Assembly: GCA_022774865.1 (NCBI GenBank) | Contig: JALFLH010000035.1 | Span: forward strand, 1 to 64,000 | Direction: 5' to 3' | From: Clostridiales bacterium | GTDB lineage: Bacteria > Bacillota > Clostridia > Oscillospirales > Oscillospiraceae | DNA: 64,000 bases | Shown: positions 3,940-12,578 of the stretch, piece by piece | Layout: each line of letters starts with the position of its first letter | Position numbering within the stretch: the first letter of the stretch is position 1 | Notes under the pieces: generated by a model | Databases searched by the model: none | Seen by the model: the letters and a program-made list of their open reading frames with translations, nothing else | What the model was told of the DNA's origin: nothing | Program-made: the position numbers and the translations under genes

Positions 3940-3998
3940 GATGAGAACTCCTTTGAAATCAAAACTGCGGACAGATACACCGCCCGCAGCAAAACAAA

Positions 3999-4018
3999 AT
4001 GGGCGCAAACGCGCCCAT
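3999..4018 (-). terminator. Riboswitch-controlled terminator of queT
   Basis: ATGGGCGC/GCGCCCAT form an 8-bp stem with a 4-nt loop. On the minus strand TTTGTTTT follows. It lies between the preQ1 aptamer and queT, as expected of a transcription-attenuation platform. A second stem (CTGCGG/CCGCAG, 3964-3989) lies nearer the start codon. Confidence 0.8.
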
Positions 4019-4025
4019 CCAAATT

Positions 4026-4067
4026 CCCTAGTTTTGTTTACCGACAGGATGGTTACGAACTGTCCTA
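4026..4067 (-). promoter_or_regulatory. preQ1-I riboswitch aptamer
   Basis: Read on the minus strand, a P1 stem GACAG/CTGTC encloses TTCGTAACCAT. It is followed by an A-rich tail AAACAAAACTAGG whose GG can pair with the CC of the loop to close the H-type pseudoknot. This matches the small class I preQ1 aptamer (compare the T. tengcongensis type with GUAACC and AACAAAAC). Position directly before a terminator and queT supports feedback repression by preQ1. Confidence 0.85.
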
Positions 4068-4080
4068 TTGAATTACCCGT

Positions 4081-4109
4081 ATTATATCCGGGAACCGGGG
4101 TGTTGTCAA
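4081..4109 (-). promoter_or_regulatory. Sigma-A promoter for the queT transcript
   Basis: On the minus strand TTGACA (4109-4104) and TATAAT (4086-4081) have a 17-bp spacer. Transcription would begin just upstream of the riboswitch. The plus-strand stretch 4110-4394 contains no gene; I see only a small GCAACC/GGTTGC stem at about 4297-4311. Confidence 0.85.
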
Positions 4110-4394
4110 GGAAAAAGTAACATTGCTTCGATGGCAGCCTTCAGCGTGTCCACAATCCGTCCGGCGGCGGACAGGGTCAGCCCTGCGTCACTGTTTCCGC
4201 CGGGATCAACTGACTGACTTGCGGAATGCAATCCTGAAGTCAGCGCATAGAATGATATGTCGGAAAGCATGGGCGAAAGCCGCAATTTATGACAATGCAA
4301 CCTCTGGTTGCGAAAGTTCCATGCAAAACTGCTGGCTTTCTGCACCGTATTTTGATAGAATAATTCCATCCAAAAGACGAAAGGGGAAAAGACT

Positions 4395-5066
4395 ATGACC
4401 TTCGGAGAAAAATTACAGGCGCTTCGTCGCAGAACTGGGATGTCTCAGGATATGCTGGCAGAGAAATTGGAGGTGTCCCGTCAAGCAGTCAGCAAGTGGG
4501 AGCGGGATGAGGCAATGCCGGAAACCGACAAGCTGGTTCGGATTGCAAAACTCTTTGATATCAGTCTGGATGAACTTCTGATGGGTAAAAAGCCCCAGCC
4601 GGAGCAGACGCAGACGGCTCAGCCCGGCCAGGTTTACACAGATGTGAAGCGAACCGTCAAGCGTCACGGCTACAAACTGGGGTATGTATTTCTGACGCTG
4701 GGCGTGCTGACCTGCGTGTTAAGCCTGCTGCTGTATTTTCTTTGGCCGGGTCTGGCGGGAAGCTTTTTTGGGGGATTTGACAACGTTTTCTCTCCCGCAG
4801 GCCAGACGGAGATGATTTTTGACTTTGGCGATCTGCCTGACTCGGTGCGTGGGGAGATGGAGGCGGCCCTGCGGGAGGAACTGAACGGCATGAGCGGCTA
4901 CAGTATGATGGATCCCGCCATAAGCCAGATGAAGGGCATGAGAGACAGCGCGCTCAAGACTCAGGCGAGTCTCTTCCTGATTGGATTGGTGCCCGGCCTG
5001 CTGCTGACCGCAACGGGCGCTGTAATCCTCATCAAAGGCAAAAAGCTGGCGGAAGAAACGGCCTGA
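4395..5066 (+). CDS. XRE-family HTH regulator with two membrane segments
   Basis: The 223-residue protein begins with a canonical Cro/CI helix-turn-helix (residues 1-62; MSQDMLAEKLEVSRQAVSKWE). A short linker follows, then a transmembrane segment at about 96-120 (YVFLTLGVLTCVLSLLLYFLW), an external loop of about 75 residues, and a second membrane segment near the C-terminus (ASLFLIGLVPGLLLTATGAVIL). Membrane-anchored XRE proteins of this form are common in Clostridia and presumably sense envelope or extracellular state; the target is unknown. The start ATG follows AAAGGGGAAAAG. Confidence 0.85.
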   Translation: MTFGEKLQALRRRTGMSQDMLAEKLEVSRQAVSKWERDEAMPETDKLVRIAKLFDISLDELLMGKKPQPEQTQTAQPGQVYTDVKRTVKRHGYKLGYVFLTLGVLTCVLSLLLYFLWPGLAGSFFGGFDNVFSPAGQTEMIFDFGDLPDSVRGEMEAALREELNGMSGYSMMDPAISQMKGMRDSALKTQASLFLIGLVPGLLLTATGAVILIKGKKLAEETA

Positions 5067-5075
5067 CGCATGAAA

Positions 5076-5105
5076 AATCCGCTTCGGAGCTTTCCGAAGC
5101 GGATT
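5076..5105. terminator. Bidirectional terminator between the XRE gene and tsf
   Basis: A perfect 13-bp stem (5076-5088 with 5093-5105) has A's upstream and a mixed T-rich tract downstream. It sits between convergent genes and can serve both. Confidence 0.8.
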
Positions 5106-5123
5106 CAAACTTTATGGGGTCAA

Positions 5124-6053
5124 TTACTTGCCGGCACCGGCGATCTGGGCGGCGACTTCAGCGGCGAAATCGTCAACCTTCTTCTCAATGCCCTCGCCCT
5201 TGACGTAGTGAACGGCGTCCACAAAGGTGACCTTGCCGCCCAGCTTCTTGGCAGCGTCGGCAATGTAGCCGGCCACATCGCCCTTGAACAGGTCGGAGCG
5301 GACAAACTCCTGCTGCAGCAGGCAGCTTTCCTTGTAGAAGGCGGCAAGCTTGCCCTGCGCGATCTTCTCCTTGACCTGAGCGGGCTTGGAAGCCATCTTG
5401 GGATCGTTGTCCATCAGGGCAACCTGAACTGCCATTTCATGCTCCACATCGGCCTGCGGAACCTGCGCCTTGTCCCAGTACTTGGGGCTCATGGCCGCGA
5501 TCTGCATGGCCACGTTCTTGCCGATTTCGGTGGCATCGATGCCGCCCTCCACGGCCAGATTGACCAGAACGCCGTGGCTGCCGCCGGCATGAACGTAGGC
5601 GACGGAGGTGTTCTCGGGGAAGCGGGCAAAACGGCGAATCTGAATATTCTCACCGATGGACATGACCTTCTCCTGCATGATTTCGGTGACGGTCAGGTTG
5701 GAGCCGGGGTACTTGCAGGCCTTCAGCGCTGCCACATCTGCGGGGTTCTCAGTGGCAACAACAACGGCCAGATTCTTGACCAGATCCATAAAAGCATCGG
5801 TCTTGGCGGCAAAGTCAGTCTCGGAGTTGACCTCGATGATCACACCCACGCCGTTGACGACGGTGGCGTAGGCAACGCCTTCGGCGGCAACCCGGTCAGC
5901 CTTCTTGGCAGCCTTGGCCAGACCCTTCTCACGCAGCCAGTCAACAGCCTTGTCCATATCGCCGTCGGTGGCCTGCAGGGCTTTCTTGCAGTCCATCATG
6001 CCCACGTTGGTCATTTCACGGAGTTTCTTCACGTCCTGTGCGGTAAAAGCCAT
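5124..6053 (-). CDS. tsf: Translation elongation factor Ts
   Basis: The 309-residue product is the guanine-nucleotide exchange factor that regenerates EF-Tu-GTP. It has the N-terminal UBA-like module (about 1-50), the signature LREMTNVGMMDCKKAL at residues 10-25 including the conserved TGxGMMDCKKAL-type core, the NSETDFAAK motif (about 117-125), and the dimerisation/core domains with the VHYVKGEGIEKK C-terminal segment. It lies 29 bp downstream of rpsB, the universal bacterial order. The start ATG follows GAGGAGG. Confidence 0.97.
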   Translation of the reverse strand: MAFTAQDVKKLREMTNVGMMDCKKALQATDGDMDKAVDWLREKGLAKAAKKADRVAAEGVAYATVVNGVGVIIEVNSETDFAAKTDAFMDLVKNLAVVVATENPADVAALKACKYPGSNLTVTEIMQEKVMSIGENIQIRRFARFPENTSVAYVHAGGSHGVLVNLAVEGGIDATEIGKNVAMQIAAMSPKYWDKAQVPQADVEHEMAVQVALMDNDPKMASKPAQVKEKIAQGKLAAFYKESCLLQQEFVRSDLFKGDVAGYIADAAKKLGGKVTFVDAVHYVKGEGIEKKVDDFAAEVAAQIAGAGK

Positions 6054-6082
6054 TTTCGTATCCTCCTCAGTCTGTATCTGAA

Positions 6083-6823
6083 TTATTCGGCGGCGGGAGC
6101 CTCAACGGCGGCTTCAGCGGCTTCGGCGGGAGCGGCGTCCTCACCCTGACGGCCTTCGATGGCGGCGTTGGCCATGGTAGCGGCAATCAGGCGGATGGCG
6201 CGGATGGCGTCATCGTTGCCGGGGATCACGTAGTCGATCTCGTCGGGATCGCAGTTGGTGTCCACGATGGCCACGATGGGAATGTTCAGCTTCTTGGCCT
6301 CGGCGATGGCGTTGCGCTCCTTGCGGGGGTCAACGATGAACAGCGCGGCGGGCAGCTTCTTCATTTCCTTCACGCCGCCCAGGTACTTCTCCAGCTTCTC
6401 GATCTCGCCCTGGTGCTTGATGACTTCCTTCTTGGGCAGCATGGCAAAGGTGCCGTCCTCTTCCATCTTCTTGAGCTGGGTCAGACGGTCGATACGGGTG
6501 CGCATGGTGCGGAAGTTGGTCAGCATACCGCCCAGCCAGCGGGCGTTGACGTAGTAACCGCCGCAGCGGGCAGCCTCTTCCTTGATGGCGTCCTGCGCCT
6601 GCTTCTTGGTGCCGACGAACAGAATGTTGCCGCCGTTGGCAGCGGTGTCACGGACGAAGTTGTAGGCCTCCTCCAGCTTCTTCACGGTCTTCTGCAGGTC
6701 GATGATGTAGATACCGTTGCGCTCGGTGTAGATGTAGGGAGCCATTTTGGGGTTCCAGCGGCGGGTCTGGTGACCGAAATGCACGCCGGCCTCCAGCAGT
6801 TGCTTCATAGATACGACAGCCAT
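6083..6823 (-). CDS. rpsB: 30S ribosomal protein S2
   Basis: The 246-residue small-subunit protein starts [27 protein letters not shown], the S2 signature, and contains the PDALFIVDP-equivalent [16 protein letters not shown] and VDTNCDPD segments. The C-terminus carries a low-complexity Ala/Glu tail (about 20 residues), often seen in Clostridia. ATG follows AAAAGGAG. It is the first gene of the rpsB-tsf operon. Confidence 0.97.
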
Positions 6824-6956
6824 GTTTCAATTTCTCCTTTTGTTTTGTTTGTTCCTCCACCCCGATCATCCCGCCTGCCCGTCCCATATTGGGACACTGG
6901 AGCCTGCGATCCCCGGGTGTGTGGATTTGTCATGAGTCTTTTGCCCATGCCGATTC

Positions 6957-6985
6957 ATTATACGCTGCTTTTGCAGGTTTTGCAA
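6957..6985 (-). promoter_or_regulatory. rpsB-tsf promoter
   Basis: On the minus strand TTGCAA (6985-6980) and TATAAT (6962-6957) are 17 bp apart. The ~130-nt leader down to rpsB includes a small GTCCC/GGGAC stem (about 6884-6897), which could be part of an S2 autoregulatory leader; I cannot confirm that. Confidence 0.75.
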
Positions 6986-7036
6986 GTATTATTTCCAAAA
7001 TAATTCAAAAAAATTCTCCAATTCTGACCGCAATGC

Positions 7037-7067
7037 AGGAAGGCTCCCCGATTTGGGAAGCCTTCCT
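7037..7067 (-). terminator. Hairpin at the end of the YlmC/YmxH gene
   Basis: AGGAAGGCT (7037-7045) pairs with AGCCTTCCT (7059-7067) right at the stop codon. No strong T tract follows, so termination may be weak. Confidence 0.4.
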
Positions 7068-7347
7068 ACCATTTGAAGCCCTGCTTGGGCCGGGGCACCC
7101 GGCAGTCCTCCGGCTTCGCGTCCACAAGAACGATATCCGGGCCGATTTTTTTGATGCAGCCCCATGGAATGCAGAAATCCTGCCGTCCGCCGCCGAAGCC
7201 AAGCAGCTTCCCGGGGCAGGGGACGATGATGGCGGTGATTTTTCCCTCCGGCATCTCCACCTCCACATCCTCGATAAAGCCGAGCCGGCGTCCGTCGCTG
7301 ACGCAGATTACTTCCTTGCACTGCAACTGGGTCAATTTAGTAGCCAT
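7066..7347 (-). CDS. YlmC/YmxH family PRC-barrel protein
   Basis: The 93-residue protein is a stand-alone PRC-barrel (residues ~10-80) with the family pattern CKEVICVSDGRRLGFIEDVEVEMPEGKI and IPWGCIKKIGPDIVLVD. YlmC/YmxH proteins are a Firmicutes sporulation-associated family whose biochemical role is not established. It lies 70 bp downstream of the 3' half of sigG, the neighbourhood seen in many Clostridia, supporting the view that both belong to one sporulation unit. Confidence 0.85.
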   Translation of the reverse strand: MATKLTQLQCKEVICVSDGRRLGFIEDVEVEMPEGKITAIIVPCPGKLLGFGGGRQDFCIPWGCIKKIGPDIVLVDAKPEDCRVPRPKQGFKW

Positions 7348-7416
7348 AAGCCGCCCCTCCCGGTTTGTTTGCTTCAGCTTATGCCGGGGGAAGGACGAAT
7401 ATGACTGACGCGTTCG

Positions 7417-7914
7417 TCAGGAGACGCTGACGGATTTTCGCATGGCGCCGATGGCGCTTTTCTCCAGCCGGGACACCTGCGCCTGCGAGATGCCGAGAAA
7501 ACCCGCCACCTCCATCTGGGTTTTTCCGTCGTAGAAGCGCAGGGACAGAATCTGCTTTTCCCGGGGTCCCAGATTCTCAAAGGCGCTCTGAAGCGTGATG
7601 TGTTCCATCCAGCGCTCATCGGTATTTTTGGTATCGCGCACCTGATCCATGACCGTCAGCGGATCTCCTCCGTCGGAATAGACGGGATCGTACAGACTCA
7701 CCGGCGCGCAGACCGCGTCCAGTGCCTGACTGACATCCTCGATGGGCATGGCCAGCTCCTTTGAAATTTCTTCAATGGTCGGTTCCCGACCCAGACGGGC
7801 GGTCTGCGCCTCCTTGCACTGCAGAACCCGGTAAGCCACATCCCGGATGGAGCGGGAGACCCGGATGGCACTGTTGTCCCGCAGGTAGCGCCGCACTTCG
7901 CCGGCAATCATGGG
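7417..7914 (-). CDS. sigG: sigG, 3' half (RNA polymerase sporulation sigma-G, C-terminal part)
   Basis: From the Pro codon at 7914 this encodes the rest of region 2.4 onward: AGEVRRYLRDN, region 3 (SVSLYDPVYSDGGDP, typical of SigF/SigG), and the region 4 helix-turn-helix GKTQMEVAGFLGISQAQVSRLEK. It starts exactly where the 5' half at 12017-11733 stops. No SD site precedes its first ATG (7911), so it is unlikely to be translated alone. Joined to the 5' half it gives 259 residues, against about 260 for Bacillus SigG. Sigma-G drives late forespore transcription. The gene is split by the element at 7915-11735. Confidence 0.92.
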   Translation of the reverse strand, partial: PMIAGEVRRYLRDNSAIRVSRSIRDVAYRVLQCKEAQTARLGREPTIEEISKELAMPIEDVSQALDAVCAPVSLYDPVYSDGGDPLTVMDQVRDTKNTDERWMEHITLQSAFENLGPREKQILSLRFYDGKTQMEVAGFLGISQAQVSRLEKSAIGAMRKSVSVS

Positions 7915-7932
7915 AATGATTGTCGGATGTAG
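7913..7932. repeat. attR: element end inside sigG (recombination site)
   Basis: After the GG at 7913-7914 (CC on the coding strand) comes AATGATTGTCGGATGTAG (7915-7932). This matches in inverted orientation the other end, CTACATAAGACAATCATT (11716-11733), at 16 of 18 positions. In the excised circle the two arms face each other around CC as an 18+2+18 dyad, the usual form of attP for large serine recombinases. Confidence 0.85.
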
Positions 7933-7974
7933 AGGAATGGTTATTTTAATATCCGACCCAATTTTAATAATTGG

Positions 7975-9564
7975 TCAGATTGTTCCGACTTCTTCTTTTT
8001 TCATTAAGAAACTGTGCAATTTCAGCTTGATACTGATGCCTTTTTCCTTGTCAATAATGACCTTCTCAATCAGGTCACGGCAGGTGGATTGCCGCATTAA
8101 CGGGGTCATGGAGGGCCATGTTTCTTTCAGAGTGCGAAGTGTGTCTTTTACATGGTCAACCCGCTTCTGGAGCGACTGCCTTGTCTGTTCATCACTTAGC
8201 TGCCGCTCTAACTCCCTCTTTCGGCTGCTGAGGGTCTGAATCTTTTCCCTCAAAATATCATCGTCAAAATCATCTTCAAGGTCAAGCAGCTTGCTCAGCT
8301 TGGATTTAATACCCTTCAACTCTTTTTCGATGGCCTCAAAGGGGTCAATATAAACAGGGGCTTTGGTATCTTCTGTGTTGGCAAGATAGCTCATTTCAAA
8401 CAAAGCCTCTGCAACGGCATCCTCAACATCCGAGGCCCAAAACCGTTCCTGAGAACAGCTATCGCTTTTCACAAGATAGGGTTTGCTTTCTCTGGTTGAT
8501 TTCTGCGTGGAATAACAGACAATTTTGCAATCTCCGTATTTGTTCCACTTCTGGTATCTCATGCGGGAACCACATTCACCACAGTATAGCAGACCAGAAA
8601 GCAAATGCTCAGAATCGGCACGGTTGACACTTCTGTTTTCAAGTTCCCGTTGGGCTTCTTCCCAGCGTTCCAGAGGAATAATAGGCTCATGCAGACCCTT
8701 GTATTCCTTGCCTTTGTACTCAATGCAGCCTGTCAGAGATTTCCTTTTCAGAATGTTCAGGACAATCTTTTCACCCTTAAAGCCTAACCGAGTAGCAATT
8801 TTGGCGGGGGACATTTTTTCCTCAATATACAGTCTGAAAACCTCTCTGATTTTCTCAGCCTGCTCAGGAATGACTATCAGCGTGTCGGCCTTATCGTCAT
8901 AGTAATAGCCATAGGGGGTCATGCCGCCGCCTGGCCATTTACCTTCCTCAACACGGGCAATCATGCCATCCTTCAGCTTCCTAACAATCAGGTCACGGTC
9001 ATACTCAGCAAGGGAAGCAAACAGGGTCAACAGGAACTTTCCTTGTGCATTGTTGGGGCTAACGCTACAAGCTGGCTCTGCCACAGAAATAAAGTTAATA
9101 TCTTCTTTATTTCTGTTAATGGTGCTTTGCTTGGCATCCTTGGCACACACAATGTAGTCCTGAATGAACTGCAATGTTCCCAACAATGTACGGCCCAATC
9201 TGTCCATTCTGGGGACAATAAAGGTATCAATCCTGATATTTGATTCCCCATCATTAAACTTGTCAATGAAAGCCATCACAGCCGCCAGAGCGGGTCTATC
9301 GGTCATTTTTGTACCTGTATAGCCATCATCAATAAACAGGACAAGGTTTTTATAGCCCATGCTCTTGCAGTAGGTCACAACCTTATTTTCCTGAATGTCG
9401 AGGCCGTAACCTTCATCGGCCTGTTTATCAGTAGAAACACGCAGATAGCCGAAATTTACAAGATAATTCCCTTCGGCATCGGTGTCAACCTGTTCATCAA
9501 TGGCTATTTTCATGTATGGCATCACATCCAGAATGGAGCCTAATGTTAATTTCTTTCTTGCCAT
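7975..9564 (-). CDS. Large serine recombinase of the sigG element
   Basis: The 529-residue protein has an N-terminal resolvase/invertase catalytic domain with nucleophile Ser44 (YLRVSTDKQ) and the catalytic-arginine segment VPRMDRLGRT. A recombinase domain follows (about 215-310; GGGMTPYGYYYD, LNILKRKSLTG). Next come a zinc ribbon (CGECG near 333, further cysteines downstream) and a long coiled coil (about 405-490) of the kind that controls integration versus excision. This is the SpoIVCA/phiC31 class. Its stop lies 43 bp from the attR arm. The ~40-residue extension before the catalytic core is longer than usual. It is expected to recombine the attL/attR sites bounding the element. Confidence 0.95.
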   Translation of the reverse strand: MARKKLTLGSILDVMPYMKIAIDEQVDTDAEGNYLVNFGYLRVSTDKQADEGYGLDIQENKVVTYCKSMGYKNLVLFIDDGYTGTKMTDRPALAAVMAFIDKFNDGESNIRIDTFIVPRMDRLGRTLLGTLQFIQDYIVCAKDAKQSTINRNKEDINFISVAEPACSVSPNNAQGKFLLTLFASLAEYDRDLIVRKLKDGMIARVEEGKWPGGGMTPYGYYYDDKADTLIVIPEQAEKIREVFRLYIEEKMSPAKIATRLGFKGEKIVLNILKRKSLTGCIEYKGKEYKGLHEPIIPLERWEEAQRELENRSVNRADSEHLLSGLLYCGECGSRMRYQKWNKYGDCKIVCYSTQKSTRESKPYLVKSDSCSQERFWASDVEDAVAEALFEMSYLANTEDTKAPVYIDPFEAIEKELKGIKSKLSKLLDLEDDFDDDILREKIQTLSSRKRELERQLSDEQTRQSLQKRVDHVKDTLRTLKETWPSMTPLMRQSTCRDLIEKVIIDKEKGISIKLKLHSFLMKKEEVGTI

Positions 9565-9665
9565 TGCAGCACCTCCAATGTTTTTTCTCTATTCTAACAC
9601 ACTTCCTCAACTAAAGCAAGTGCTAAATCAATAATGATTATCTTATGTAGAGGAAAATTAAAGAA

Positions 9666-9688
9666 GGGGTGCCAAAATCTGGCACCCC
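9666..9688 (-). terminator. Terminator between the 48-aa ORF and the recombinase gene
   Basis: GGGGTGCCA/TGGCACCCC form a 9-bp stem, and on the minus strand TTCTTTAATT follows. It separates the small upstream gene from the recombinase, so the recombinase probably has its own promoter or depends on read-through. Confidence 0.75.
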
Positions 9689-9694
9689 AATATG

Positions 9695-9841
9695 TTAAGC
9701 GGCTGTATGTTCCTTTTCCATCTTGTCAGCCACGGCATTGACATTCCTGTTGACGTTCTTGTTATTGATTACAAGGTATTTCCAATCTTCACGGGGGATT
9801 TCCTGTTCACCCAAAAACACTCTAACCTTAAATTTCATCAT
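9695..9841 (-). CDS. 48-residue protein upstream of the recombinase (candidate directionality factor)
   Basis: A short ORF begins ATGATG at 9841, preceded by AGAAAGGAG with good spacing, and is closed by a strong terminator. The product is small and charged, starting MMKFKVRVFLGEQEIPRED and ending DKMEKEHTAA, with no Cys. I do not recognise a family. Position directly upstream of a large serine recombinase makes it a candidate recombination directionality factor; known examples (such as SprB of SPbeta) are similarly small and lack common motifs. That role is a guess from size and context. Confidence 0.6.
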   Translation of the reverse strand: MMKFKVRVFLGEQEIPREDWKYLVINNKNVNRNVNAVADKMEKEHTAA

Positions 9842-10047
9842 GCACTCCTTTCTCTGCGATTCTAGCCAAAATTATCTTTCTTTAATCCTTATAGTTAGAA
9901 TCGGCTCAAAAGGGAGGGCGAAACCAAATATTTTTAATTTAATCCAGAATTGTTGCTTCGGGTCTGGCCTTTTTGCTGTCCAGAGGGGAGGAAAATAAAT
10001 AAAGCAGCCCCAATACTTGATACATTGCTTTCCCCAAAAAACAGTAA

Positions 10048-10064
10048 CGTCATTTGAAATGACG
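10048..10064. repeat. 17-bp perfect palindrome inside the element
   Basis: CGTCATTT-G-AAATGACG is a perfect dyad between the prepilin gene's terminator (10087-10106) and the 48-aa ORF. It resembles a repressor operator more than a terminator because no T tract follows. The rest of 9842-10086 holds only an 8-bp inverted repeat (CGATTCTA/TAGAATCG, 9857-9903); I see no gene there. Confidence 0.5.
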
Positions 10065-10086
10065 GAACAGGGGACAACAAAGAAAA

Positions 10087-10106
10087 CCCCCGCCGATTGG
10101 CAGGGG
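10087..10106 (-). terminator. Terminator of the prepilin-like gene
   Basis: CCCC-C-GCC/GGC-A-GGGG stem with a GATT loop. On the minus strand TTTTCTTTG follows. It is 16 bp past the prepilin stop. Confidence 0.7.
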
Positions 10107-10121
10107 CCGAAAAGGATTCTA

Positions 10122-10763
10122 TTATCTTGCGTCTACGTTGGTTCCATCCCATTGACCAGTTACTTGGATAGCCTCTGATAAGTTACCCATCTTAATGAAT
10201 ACGGTGTAATCAGAGTTTCTGTAGGTCTTGGAAGTCAGTTTCACAGTGCTGCCGATAGTTGCTTTCAACTCACCTGCAAGAACACCTGTTTGTGCGCCTG
10301 TTCCAGCAGTCATAGCATTTAGAGTTGTCTTGTTGCCATTAGCACCGTTCTGTTTCCCGTCATATGTGGCATCGGGAATATCATTGACCTTTGCATCGTC
10401 CAAAGTGATAACATAATCAGTAGGACAGAAAGTAATGGTTAAACCACGCATTTCGCCTTCAGCGGTTCCACGAACTTCATCAGCAGCAGTGGAATAATTT
10501 GCATAGTTAGCCTTGTCTCCCGCTTTGTTGCCAAAGCTGTAAGCCAAACATTCATCGTACACATTCTGGTTAGCCAGAGCTAGCTTGACAGCGTGTGTAA
10601 CTTCACTCATAGCGGAATCGTCTTTTTGTGCTCTGGAATCTTCAACATATTTCAGGAGCGCAGGAGCCAGCACAGCGGTCAATACTGCCATAATCGCAAT
10701 GACCACGATTAACTCAACCAGAGAGAAACCTTTGTTTTCATTTTTCATAATTTCGTTTTTCAT
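10122..10763 (-). CDS. Type IV prepilin-like protein carried by the sigG element
   Basis: The 213-residue protein has a class III signal: a short basic leader ending in G, then mature FSLVELIVVIAIMAVLTAVLAP. Phe1 and Glu5 are the residues needed for prepilin peptidase cleavage, methylation and assembly. The hydrophobic helix continues into an amphipathic stretch with basic and Asp residues, followed by a variable Asn/Gly/Thr-rich head with single Cys residues near 76 and 118. No pilus assembly ATPase, prepilin peptidase or platform gene lies in the window, so machinery would have to come from elsewhere. The start ATG at 10763 follows GAGG at 10-bp spacing; the in-frame ATG five codons later is possible. 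An unusual cargo for such an element. Confidence 0.85.
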   Translation of the reverse strand: MKNEIMKNENKGFSLVELIVVIAIMAVLTAVLAPALLKYVEDSRAQKDDSAMSEVTHAVKLALANQNVYDECLAYSFGNKAGDKANYANYSTAADEVRGTAEGEMRGLTITFCPTDYVITLDDAKVNDIPDATYDGKQNGANGNKTTLNAMTAGTGAQTGVLAGELKATIGSTVKLTSKTYRNSDYTVFIKMGNLSEAIQVTGQWDGTNVDAR

Positions 10764-10854
10764 ACTTTATCAACCTCGTATTTTATAAGTTGTAAAACGG
10801 TTATCCGTTTCCGATAATAAGATAGAAGAAAAAAGAAAAAAAGTAGAAAAAAAT

Positions 10855-10880
10855 AAGCAGACCCGAAAATGGGCCTGCTT
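10855..10880 (-). terminator. Terminator of the 48-aa Cys-motif ORF
   Basis: AAGCAG-A-CCC pairs with GGG-C-CTGCTT. On the minus strand ATTTTTTTCTAC follows. It is a strong intrinsic terminator just past the stop at 10893. Confidence 0.8.
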
Positions 10881-10892
10881 AGTGTTATTTGG

Positions 10893-11039
10893 TTACGAAC
10901 CTGATGCAGGGAAGGTATCGACATATGAAGCAGAGCAACGTGTGCAAACGTATGTTACCAGTTCTTCACCGTTTGGGCCAGTAGAAATATTGCTAATTTT
11001 GTAGTTATGACCAAGTGGGGGAGTTATATTATGGGTCAC
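10893..11039 (-). CDS. 48-residue ORF with CxxC motif, probable remnant of a surface-repeat protein
   Basis: Reading from a GTG at 11039 directly after an in-frame stop, the peptide contains GHNYKISN and TYVCTRCSASYVD. This is the pattern of the GH-x-Y...YxCxxC modules found near the ends of large Clostridia surface proteins. No convincing SD site precedes the GTG, so it may be a decayed C-terminal fragment, yet it ends in a strong terminator. It lies between the DNA-binding-like gene and the prepilin gene, in the same orientation. Confidence 0.4.
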   Translation of the reverse strand: MTHNITPPLGHNYKISNISTGPNGEELVTYVCTRCSASYVDTFPASGS

Positions 11040-11078
11040 CTCTTATTATAGATATCATCTCAGCAGGAAACAACCGTT

Positions 11079-11106
11079 AAGGGTGCCGCCGATGTGCAGC
11101 ACCCTT
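11079..11106 (-). terminator. Hairpin after the DNA-binding-like gene of the element
   Basis: AAGGGTGC (11079-11086) pairs with GCACCCTT (11099-11106) just past the stop at 11112. The minus-strand tail is short (TTAACGG), so strength is uncertain. Confidence 0.5.
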
Positions 11107-11111
11107 TCTTG

Positions 11112-11690
11112 CTATACCCGTCTGCTGGACTGAGCAGCGGCCTGTAAAAATTCTTCATCCACTTGGACATTGACTTTGAACTTAACAGGAACATGGTCAC
11201 GCTTCATGTCAAAGTATTGGGGGAGGCCCAAATGCTTAACAAGATTCCTCCATGTGCCCAGATGGTAATATTTTGCAATAGACCGCCAGCCTCTTGACTT
11301 GTCTGCACGCTTGGCGTTGAACTCGTCACCGCTGCGGGGCTTGATTCTGTAATAGTCCTCAATGAACGCCTGTGTGTATCGCTCAATCAATTCCTCTCTG
11401 GAAGGGGCGTGCTGGGGATAGTTCGTCTCAAGCCACTTCTTGACGGGCATCCCATACTTGTTTGCAATCACGGGATGTGGGGGCATTCCAGCCCTCTTGA
11501 AGTCCGTTGCCTTGGGGAACCGCCCATAGTCAACCATGAACTGCTCCACACAATCACGGATGGAACTGTCCGACCAATGGATGATGGGTAACTCGCTGCT
11601 CAATTCTTCCAGAATCCGAATGGCTTCTTCATTGCCCTGTGTCTGGGCTAAGACCTCAACGGCCTTATGTAATGCTTGCTTTCTCGTCAT
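11112..11690 (-). CDS. Element protein with homing-endonuclease-associated-type repeats, probable DNA-binding
   Basis: Starting at ATG 11690 (after AATAGGAG), the gene encodes 192 residues. A segment SDSSIRDCVEQFMVDYGRFPKATDF followed by VIANKYGMPVKKWLE resembles the HNH-associated/homing-endonuclease-associated repeat: a small helical DNA-binding module with a GRxPxxxD core and a downstream helix ending in W. A second, looser copy (GWRSIAKYYHLGTWRNLVKHLGLP) follows. No nuclease motif is visible. The reading frame is also open upstream into the sigG 5' half. Could be an element regulator or a directionality factor; function is inferred from fold only. Confidence 0.65.
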   Translation of the reverse strand: MTRKQALHKAVEVLAQTQGNEEAIRILEELSSELPIIHWSDSSIRDCVEQFMVDYGRFPKATDFKRAGMPPHPVIANKYGMPVKKWLETNYPQHAPSREELIERYTQAFIEDYYRIKPRSGDEFNAKRADKSRGWRSIAKYYHLGTWRNLVKHLGLPQYFDMKRDHVPVKFKVNVQVDEEFLQAAAQSSRRV

Positions 11691-11715
11691 TGTAGAAACT
11701 CCTATTTTTGTATTT

Positions 11716-11735
11716 CTACATAAGACAATCATTGG
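11716..11735. repeat. attL: element end inside sigG (recombination site)
   Basis: CTACATAAGACAATCATT (11716-11733) is followed by GG at 11734-11735, which is CC of the Pro codon on the coding strand. It is the inverted partner of 7915-7932 (16 of 18 identical). The outer flank is sigG region 2.4 coding sequence. Confidence 0.85.
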
Positions 11736-12017
11736 AACGCCGTAGGTGGAAAAACGTACCTGCTTGTCCGGGTCAAAATTGGAGATGGCCTTGATCAAAC
11801 CGATGCAGCCTACCTGAAACAGGTCATCCGGGGATTCCCCCCGCTTATCAAAACGCTGGATGACGGACAGCACAAGACGGAGATTCCCTTCGATCAGCGT
11901 CTGACGCGCCTGTTCATCCCCGGCACGGGCCAGCCGCAGAAGCCGGTTCATCTCCGCCTGGGAAAGGGTTTTCAGCCTGGATGTGTTCACACCGCAGATC
12001 TCTACTTTACCCTGCAT
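11733..12017 (-). CDS. sigG: sigG, 5' half (RNA polymerase sporulation sigma-G, N-terminal part)
   Basis: Ninety-five codons from ATG 12017 encode the SigG-specific N-terminus (KVEICGVNTSRLKTLS) and regions 1.2 to 2.3 (NLRLVLSVIQRF, DDLFQVGCIGLIKAI, FDPDKQVRFSTYGVP). The protein leaves the SigG alignment right after V-P-M-I and continues into element sequence, giving a 301-codon chimeric ORF ending at 11112. Region 2.4 is cut, and regions 3 and 4 are 3.8 kb away at 7417-7914, so this half cannot function as a sigma factor. ATG follows AAGGAGG. No sigE or spoIIGA lies immediately upstream, which is unusual. Confidence 0.92.
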
Positions 12018-12268
12018 GGTGATCCTCCTTGCATTTTCCGGATAAAGACAGTATTTCCCGGAACGGGCAGAAGATACCGGAAATTATTTTGGCGGATTTT
12101 CACAAAGTTTTGTTCCCCTGACAGCGGACCCGACGTTTTTGTCAGGCAAATAGCGCCGCATTCTGAACATTTTTCAGTTTTTATGACTGGAAGAATCTTC
12201 CGAAATCCGGTGACGTAACACGCCGGCGGGCGGAAATCCGACAAAATGGCGCACGGCAATGCACAGGG

Positions 12269-12420
12269 TTTTCCACACAGCTCCACCGAATTCCAACAGG
12301 CCGGAATACCTGTTGAAAACGAATACTTTTCCACATTCTCCACAGATTTTTCCACAGGGGTTTTCCACAGCCGGGGGCGTTGTGGAGATTGGACAGCGGT
12401 TAACATAAGTTTTATCGACA
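12269..12420 (+). promoter_or_regulatory. Cluster of DnaA-box-like 9-mers between sigG and rpsT
   Basis: TTTTCCACA occurs at 12269, 12327, 12348 and 12361. TTCTCCACA is at 12336, and TTATCGACA (one mismatch from TTATCCACA) at 12412. A reverse TCTCCACA lies at 12381-12388. All but the last point the same way, and an AT-rich stretch follows at about 12421-12470. No dnaA, dnaN or rpmH is nearby, so this is not an ordinary oriC. It could be a DnaA-titrating or regulatory site. The rest of the 630-bp gap (12018-12648) has no gene. Confidence 0.55.
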
Positions 12421-12578
12421 GGATTTGACAGAATTCGAATTTTTTTGCCGGCCGTAAAAATTACCACACGGAACAGCTTTGTGCAAAAATTCGGACTTGA
12501 CACCCGTCCGGAGCGAAAAGACGGCAGGGAGCGGCCTGGGGCAGCGGAAAGAAGATTGCAGTTTTTTCAAAAAAATAC

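What the first reader, a model, noticed from the sequence alone, without database searches (positions are those of the whole stretch)
7915..11735. sigG is split by a 3.8 kb serine-recombinase element: a candidate programmed 'skin-like' excision in the forespore sigma factor
Seen directly: the SigG N-half (95 codons, 12017-11733) and C-half (7914-7417) flank an element with a large serine recombinase, and every element gene reads in the sigG direction. Recombination at the shared CC dinucleotide restores V-P-M-I-A across the joint with only a silent Pro codon difference, giving 259 residues. Known: skin elements interrupt sigK, and other elements split spsM and similar genes, and are excised during sporulation by serine recombinases. 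I do not recall a described case in sigG, and its timing matters: SigG acts in the forespore, so excision there could be inherited by the spore. That would differ from mother-cell skin excision, which is lost with the mother cell.
Basis: partly seen in the sequence, partly recalled or inferred. Interest (0 to 1): 0.95.

Follow-up and report, generated by a model that had tools for sequence, protein, structure and literature searches.

The report
Split forespore sigma-factor gene, recombinase attached
The gene for sigma-G, the late master switch of the developing spore, is cut in two by a recombinase-carrying element here, it is cut at the same codon in at least eight related bacterial genera, and the recombinase is predicted to rejoin it inside the forespore.

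Summary
Observation confirmed. sigG is split after Pro95 by a 3,821-bp element with a large serine recombinase. Its ends form an inverted repeat around a CC crossover, and joining restores the frame. The element is low in GC (0.44 against 0.57), and the exact joined 259-aa protein occurs on 166 public contigs, so here it is probably a recent, polymorphic insertion.

The larger result is that the split is not unique. In 37 genomes of ten genera the sigG C-half starts at this codon; the N-half was also located in 30, of eight genera. In Flavonifractor (11 of 20 species) and genus g4 (10 of 11) the split is old: both halves are strongly constrained (dN/dS 0.02-0.05) and the recombinase follows the genus. 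Three Flavonifractor species have the halves inverted; in several g4 species they lie deep in separate large contigs. 37 of 38 C-halves lack a ribosome-site-like sequence. A small ORF before the recombinase, a candidate directionality factor, has a forespore-type -10 motif in 24 of 28 genomes and the mother-cell motif in none.

Best reading: programmed joining of sigG, predicted in the forespore. Recombination was not observed.

The parts
12049..12077 (-). Forespore-type promoter of sigG (GTATC, 14 nt, GGAAATACTG)
   Evidence: a forespore-type -10 lies upstream of 28 of 29 split N-halves (wider window than for the small ORFs, no control windows). Consensus recalled, not from a call.
11733..12017 (-). 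sigG N-half, 95 codons, regions 1.2 to 2
   Evidence: TIGR02850, PF04542
11716..11735 (-). N-side junction: CC crossover plus right inverted-repeat arm AATGATTGTCTTATGTAG
11112..11690 (-). ORF1, predicted all-helical, weak HNH_repeat match; first element gene after the sigG N-half, own ribosome site; in frame with SigG here
   Evidence: (PF18780, E 0.0045, below its cut-off)
10122..10763 (-). pilin-like cargo protein with prepilin N-methylation motif
9859..9867 (-). sigma-F-like -10 motif GGCTAGAAT upstream of the small ORF
9695..9841 (-). 48-aa small ORF upstream of the recombinase; candidate recombination directionality factor (inferred from position and promoter class)
7975..9564 (-). large serine recombinase, 529 aa, type A sigG-linked clade
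7913..7932 (-). C-side junction: left inverted-repeat arm CTACATCCGACAATCATT plus CC crossover
7417..7914 (-). sigG C-half, Pro95 codon to stop, regions 3 and 4; no ribosome-site-like sequence before its ATG
7066..7347 (-). ylmC/ymxH family sporulation gene downstream of sigG
   Evidence: TIGR02888, 74.6 bits, cut-off 44.2

Best explanation
sigG is split in two at one fixed codon by DNA that carries its own large serine recombinase, here and in at least seven further genera, and the recombinase is predicted to rejoin the halves in the forespore during sporulation so that sigma-G can be made. Shown: the split, the CC core, the inverted-repeat arms, the restorable frame, the recombinase beside the gene, selection on both halves. 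Inferred: sigma-F transcribes the sigG front half and, from a similar promoter, the small ORF beside the recombinase; the small protein acts as directionality factor and turns the recombinase towards attL x attR joining; joined sigG then amplifies itself. In this window the outcome would be excision of a 3.8-kb circle. In three Flavonifractor species the orientation calls for an inversion of about 3.7 kb instead. In genus g4 it would be an inversion or other rearrangement over a large distance. Re-integration after germination, when the directionality factor is absent, is also inferred.
For: Halves and domains. In 28 of 28 genomes with both 24-nt arms readable CC lies on both sides; arms match as inverted repeats 15.7 of 24 within a genome against 11.6 across genomes, 0 of 20,000 permutations as good. 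The joined frame is restored in 29 of 29. dN/dS medians: Flavonifractor N 0.035, C 0.047 (intact relatives 0.046, 0.119); g4 N 0.017, C 0.041, with dS near saturation and 9 of 15 and 15 of 28 pairs usable; recombinase 0.187 and 0.083. Recombinases are monophyletic by genus: Flavonifractor 11 rows 100/100, g4 7 rows 100/99. GC of type B recombinases follows the host, r = 0.934, n = 25. Forespore-type -10 motif before the small ORF in 24 of 28 against 42 of 504 control windows; sigma-E motif 0 of 28. SASP genes in 17 of 18 split genomes searched, including this one. A recombinase ends within 320 nt of the C-half in 26 of the 35 split genomes whose loci were fetched. An identical joined protein is on 166 public contigs.
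Against: No joined product was seen next to a split copy in one strain; all genomes are assemblies. For the window's own element, low GC and a well-represented empty allele also fit a recent, unprogrammed insertion. Arm matching is significant over all genomes but not within g4 alone (1,330 of 20,000 permutations as good) and is lower than across genomes within Flavonifractor (19,976 of 20,000), where all arms share one motif. The promoter consensus is recalled and the 28 sequences are related; by genus it is 8 of 9. The small ORFs are too diverged to prove homology between types. No N-half was found for G020, G181, G185, G430, G444, G462 and G527; in g51 (G185, G444) the system looks decayed. 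No recombinase was found in the stretches held for G020, G047, G175, G512, G515, L147 and L178 (three of these contigs end at or near the junction).
Confidence: 0.7

Rival explanations
1. The window's element is an ordinary integrative element that happens to use sigG as its attachment site; carriers simply cannot make sigma-G until chance loss of the element, and nothing is programmed.
For: Element GC 0.44 against 0.57 flanks; recombinase GC 0.448 against 0.585; joined and split forms both well represented in public data; several different elements use the site in genus g1, where dN/dS of the halves is higher (0.19, 0.16); type A recombinase in 3 of 136 genomes of the genus.
Against: In Flavonifractor and g4 the split sits in whole lineages with strongly constrained halves, and the split genomes searched there (G138, G306, G355, G394; G157, G252, G315, G364, G402) keep SASP genes, which chance loss does not explain; a forespore-type motif lies before the window's own small ORF.
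Confidence: 0.25
2. Joining is real but not forespore-specific: it happens before asymmetric division, in the mother cell, or at random in growing cells as phase variation that makes only some cells able to sporulate.
For: A sigma-A-like sequence precedes the window's recombinase (read by eye); in C. difficile the skin recombinase is made constitutively (PMC5025042, passages seen); joined alleles are well represented.
Against: Forespore-type motif before the small ORF in 24 of 28 and sigma-E motif in 0 of 28; a mother-cell joint could not supply sigma-G to the forespore chromosome.
Confidence: 0.2
3. The two halves are translated separately and work as a two-piece sigma factor.
For: In g4 the halves lie deep in different contigs; the C-half ATG follows the recombinase stop by 26-94 nt in most loci, so coupled re-initiation cannot be excluded; separate sigma subunits exist in B. 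subtilis SigO-RsoA (recalled).
Against: Only 1 of 38 C-halves has a Shine-Dalgarno-like sequence before the ATG, against 25 of 29 N-halves; CC cores and arms persist at both halves.
Confidence: 0.03
4. Assembly artefact or strain mixing in metagenome assemblies.
For: All genomes are assemblies; some contigs stop at or near the junction (G020, G047, G175).
Against: Same codon in 37 genomes, single contigs spanning both halves in the window genome and 14 others, species-specific arms.
Confidence: 0.02

Closest known systems
skin element of sigK (B. subtilis, C. difficile)
   Same: Sporulation sigma-factor gene interrupted by DNA with a serine recombinase; precise joining restores it; C. difficile uses a 72-aa directionality factor (PMC5025042, passages seen).
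   Different: Gene is the forespore sigG, not mother-cell sigK; predicted promoters are forespore type; inverted and far-apart arrangements occur.
gin element in gerE (B. cereus); SPbeta in spsM (B. subtilis)
   Same: Gene-intervening elements; gin is not a prophage and needs a serine recombinase plus a helper, GirX (PMC5595907, passages seen). SPbeta: abstract start only, in a listing (PMC4191935).
   Different: gin is 28.6 kb with three serine recombinases and acts on a mother-cell regulator; the window's element is 3.8 kb with one.
fdxN element / XisF of heterocyst cyanobacteria
   Same: Best NCBIfam match of the recombinase, 99.9 bits; developmental excision restores a gene (recalled).
   Different: Far below the family cut-off of 375 bits; other phylum and gene.
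Large serine integrases (TP901-1, TnpX)
   Same: Domain order and nearest solved sequences, 3bvp and 2mhc among four hits.
   Different: No phage structural or transfer genes recognised in the window's element; whole-element mobility not shown.
Invertible phase-variation switches
   Same: In G402, G532 and G539 inverted sites flank the sigG N-half and recombinase.
   Different: Would control a developmental sigma factor; the two orientations have not been seen within one species.

Membership tests
Sporulation gene-intervening (skin-like) element | Interrupts the coding sequence of a sporulation gene | tested here: met
Sporulation gene-intervening (skin-like) element | Carries a serine recombinase and att sites whose joining restores the frame | tested here: met
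   (29 of 29 in silico)
Sporulation gene-intervening (skin-like) element | Joined gene arises by excision | tested here: inconclusive
   identical joined protein on 166 contigs; excised or never interrupted cannot be told apart
Sporulation gene-intervening (skin-like) element | Excision timed to sporulation | not testable with these tools
   only promoter motifs
Sporulation gene-intervening (skin-like) element | Mother-cell-restricted action, as for sigK and gerE | tested here: inconclusive
   motif evidence only, and it points away: sigma-E -10 motif 0 of 28, forespore-type 24 of 28
Large serine recombinase | Resolvase, Recombinase and zinc-ribbon domains; att sites with a dinucleotide core | tested here: met
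   window; G306
Prophage | Phage structural or replication genes in the window's element | tested here: not met
   no viral contig with the exact 22-nt attP centre or a close recombinase relative; only distant relatives in 108 phage records
XisF (fdxN element) | Score above the NCBIfam cut-off | tested here: not met
   99.9 against 375 bits
Invertible DNA switch | Inverted recombination sites flanking a promoter and gene part | tested here: met
   three Flavonifractor species only; not the window
Invertible DNA switch | Both orientations within one strain | not tested
   no reads available

The most novel reading that the evidence does not exclude
In this family sigma-G is made only after the forespore rewires its own chromosome. 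Sigma-F switches on a recombinase helper that joins the two halves of sigG, and in some lineages the halves lie hundreds of kilobases apart or inverted, so each spore carries a genome physically rearranged from its mother's and reset after germination: a heritable, chromosome-scale developmental rearrangement that acts as a second lock on sigma-G.
Probability: 0.4. Interest if true: 0.95.

Novelty: new variant of a known kind. Interest (0 to 1): 0.88.

Why it matters
The known cases whose passages I saw (sigK, gerE) act in the mother cell, whose rearranged chromosome is thrown away. sigG acts in the forespore, so its joining would be inherited by the spore, and a way to keep or restore the split is needed. 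The inverted and far-apart arrangements are possible solutions. It also offers a reason for a split: sigma-G activates its own gene and leaks easily (in B. subtilis, relaxing sigG expression gave aberrant activity in up to 20% of vegetative cells; PMC5942855, passages seen), and a cut in the gene would be an absolute lock. It makes the question of how uncultured gut Clostridia prevent premature sigma-G directly testable.

Tried and rejected
Rejected: 'one element in one genome' (one search showed three further genomes of the genus split at the same codon). Rejected: that intact Flavonifractor species are the joined state of the same switch; none of nine has the recombinase in the 4.7-9.9 kb upstream and the shorter downstream stretches that were held. 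Rejected: intact sigG copies in G526 and G528 as joined forms; their sequences differ from the halves and the assemblies carry 4 and 8% contamination. Rejected: a conserved SigG-ORF1 translational fusion; 2 of 6 only, and the many fusions were selected by the query. Rejected as this split: G265, G269, G272, G399, G408 (matches run across the codon or stop at contig ends). G257 is probably split but was not fetched.

Led nowhere: attP and recombinase searches of viral contigs (nothing); plasmid and phage collections (distant recombinases only, apart from MT839977); the fold of the SigG-ORF1 frame (pTM 0.31, the matches shown are nearly all sigma factors). In one search the upstream windows of six intact controls were taken on the wrong strand and are not used. 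The relative orientation of the halves in g4 could not be decided. For one search I did not count the intact genomes; 366 of 400 had a match and 30 were taken further by score, so splits whose halves are missing from an assembly are missed. Of the 136 genomes of the window's genus, 101 were searched for sigG as a set.

Literature: searches that listed no paper recognisably on an interrupted sigG: (open PMC papers; listings seen, most papers not opened). Two genome surveys of sporulation genes that mention sigG were looked into by passages; neither holds the words interrupted or recombinase (PMC11536998; PMC12536801). PMC7438776 was seen in passages.
Full report
OBSERVATION. The window carries sigG in two pieces on the minus strand: N-half 12017-11733, C-half 7914-7417, with ylmC downstream (the next genes look like rpsB and tsf by eye). 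The pieces match complementary parts of the SigG models (TIGR02850 positions 2-146, which includes drift into the element, and 93-254). Between the CC at 11735-11734 and the CC at 7914-7913 lie 3,821 bp with a large serine recombinase, a 48-aa ORF before it, a pilin-like protein and ORF1. No other intact sigG was found in the 96%-complete genome.

SITES. Put end to end, the element ends read as an inverted repeat around CC (18 bp, two mismatches: CTACATCCGACAATCATT-CC-AATGATTGTCTTATGTAG), as expected of an attP whose crossover is CC. In 28 genomes with both arms readable, CC is on both sides in 28, and the arms pair within a genome better than across genomes (15.7 against 11.6 of 24; 0 of 20,000 permutations). 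The signal lies between genera: within g4 alone it is 1,330 of 20,000, and within Flavonifractor the within-genome match is lower than the cross match. Joining restores 253-258 residues in frame in 29 of 29.

HOW COMMON. In the window's genus, 101 of 136 held genomes were searched with the SigG model: 77 have full-length sigG, four are split (window, G019, G020, G047) and 20 show neither (the 24 without full-length sigG were re-searched with the N-half). A fifth, G129, came through the recombinase search of all 136, which found a type A recombinase in three. In the family, 400 genomes were searched. Thirty of them, with G129, were re-searched because their best match had about the score of a half gene. 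Of these thirty, 24 proved split at this codon in fetched sequence, one (G257) is likely and five are not this split. Closer searches gave 10 of 11 species of genus g4 and 11 of 20 of genus g23. g23 is called Flavonifractor here: G529 is identical over 6,500 bases to a record of Candidatus Flavonifractor intestinigallinarum, family Oscillospiraceae. In all, 37 genomes in ten genera have a C-half starting at this codon. The N-half was located too in 30, in eight genera (g1, g4, g5, g11, g23, g40, g41, g96); it is missing in the one g47 and both g51 genomes and in four others. G526 and G527 were placed by search only. Further split records: L139, L147, L178 and L213 (Candidatus Agathobaculum merdigallinarum), and GenBank MT839977.1, labelled 'Bacteriophage sp.' but holding a recombinase followed by a sigG C-half.

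RECOMBINASE. Related recombinases were found at 30 of the 35 split genomes whose loci were fetched, and in L139 and L213. In 26 of the 35, and in L139 and L213, the gene ends within 320 nt before the C-half; in G246 it is 3.1 kb away; in G322, G323 and G389 it lies on the N-half side. None was found in the stretches held for G020, G047, G175, G512 and G515.

TWO KINDS. The recombinases fall into two clades. Type A (window's genus, g5, one g41 species) has GC below the host's in all six, by 0.12 to 0.14 in the window's genus. Type B (g4, g11, Flavonifractor, g40, g47, g51, g96, L139, Agathobaculum) has GC from 0.31 to 0.69 that follows the host (r = 0.934, n = 25), is monophyletic within Flavonifractor and g4 (100/100 and 100/99), and is itself constrained (dN/dS 0.187 and 0.083). 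The SigG tree puts the split Flavonifractor species on one branch (94/99). Both halves are tightly constrained, as are those of intact relatives; in the window's genus less so (0.19, 0.16). SASP genes, a sigma-G output in known spore formers (recalled), are present in 17 of 18 split genomes searched. The exception, G185, belongs to g51, where no N-half was found and the other C-half has a very long branch: there the system seems decayed.

ARCHITECTURE. Window: 3.8 kb, same orientation. Flavonifractor: eight species in the same orientation, 3.1 or about 6.4 kb apart (in G252 an aldehyde oxidoreductase set lies between); three (G402, G532, G539) have N- and C-half in opposite orientation with the recombinase between, so an inversion would be needed to join them; these three form one clade in both trees. 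g11 (G246): 25 kb holding a CRISPR-Cas locus, type I-C by its Csd1 protein. g4: in G138, G306 and G355 the halves are internal to different large contigs; in G306 at least 302 kb would lie between them if in the same orientation (N-half at 144,110 of a 588,911-base contig, C-half at 158,746 of 202,978), with ordinary genes on the far side of each (threonine synthase, RNase HII; MATE, asparaginase, formate-THF ligase).

NOT TWO PROTEINS. A ribosome-site-like sequence precedes the C-half ATG in 1 of 38 and the N-half start in 25 of 29. The C-half is therefore unlikely to be translated alone, though re-initiation after the recombinase stop, 26-94 nt upstream in most loci, cannot be excluded.

TIMING. 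Upstream of the N-half a forespore-type -10 motif is kept in 28 of 29 (no control windows for this count). A small ORF with a ribosome-site-like sequence (loose filter) lies before the recombinase in 28 of 32 sigG-linked recombinases (none for G129, G323, L139, L213). Upstream of it GGNNANANT occurs in 20 of 28 and either forespore motif in 24 of 28, in 8 of 9 genera, against 28 and 42 of 504 control ORFs; the sigma-E motif occurs in none. The consensus sequences are recalled; sigG itself is transcribed by sigma-F and sigma-G in B. subtilis (PMC5942855, passages seen). By analogy with C. difficile, where a regulated 72-aa directionality factor restricts skin excision to one cell (PMC5025042, passages seen), the small ORF is the likely trigger. 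Its homology across types is not proven.

BOTH FORMS EXIST. The protein database holds a 259-aa SigG equal to both window halves (95/95 and 164/164) on 166 contigs (P0003) and the split N-half-ORF1 frame, whose 90%-identity cluster counts 103 member sequences (P0241). The counts are different measures, and the cluster may include other species. The joined form thus exists; whether by excision or because the element never entered those strains is open.

VERDICT. A widespread split-sigG system, not found in the literature searched here, of the skin kind in what it seems to do, differing in gene, predicted cell and architecture. The window's element is its mobile-looking end; the resident type B lineages make the strongest case for programmed joining.

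Noticed in passing
L083 (G246:C10:24000-43500), 5331-12500 and beyond: A CRISPR-Cas operon (Cas3, Csd1/Cas8c, Cas7, Cas1) with a long repeat array lies between the two sigG halves.
   Followed up: partly
L086 (G252:C12:255000-266000), 3947-8521: An iron alcohol dehydrogenase, an aldehyde ferredoxin oxidoreductase and a ThiF-type protein lie between the sigG halves of a Flavonifractor species.
   Followed up: partly
L253 (MT839977.1): A GenBank record labelled unverified bacteriophage holds a type B-like recombinase (45% identity) next to a sigG C-half.
   Followed up: yes
g4 loci L094-L097, L133: The DNA just beyond the N-half arm is largely different in each of five g4 species (only G355 and G528 share some genes), while the other side and the C-half locus are syntenic in most.
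   Followed up: partly
window 10122-10763; L113 and L073 of G129: A pilin-like protein travels in the sigG element; G129 has two related copies.
   Followed up: no
P0005: A 259-aa SigG with a C-half identical to the window's but only 80 of 95 N-half residues, on one 1.2-kb contig: assembly chimera or exchange at the site.
   Followed up: no
L106 and L093 (G323): The type A element appears to sit in the opposite orientation in sigG: recombinase near the N-half, ORF1 near the C-half (two contigs).
   Followed up: no
L110, L111 (g51): C-half and recombinase remain but no N-half was found and G185 has no SASP hit: possible loss of sporulation.
   Followed up: partly
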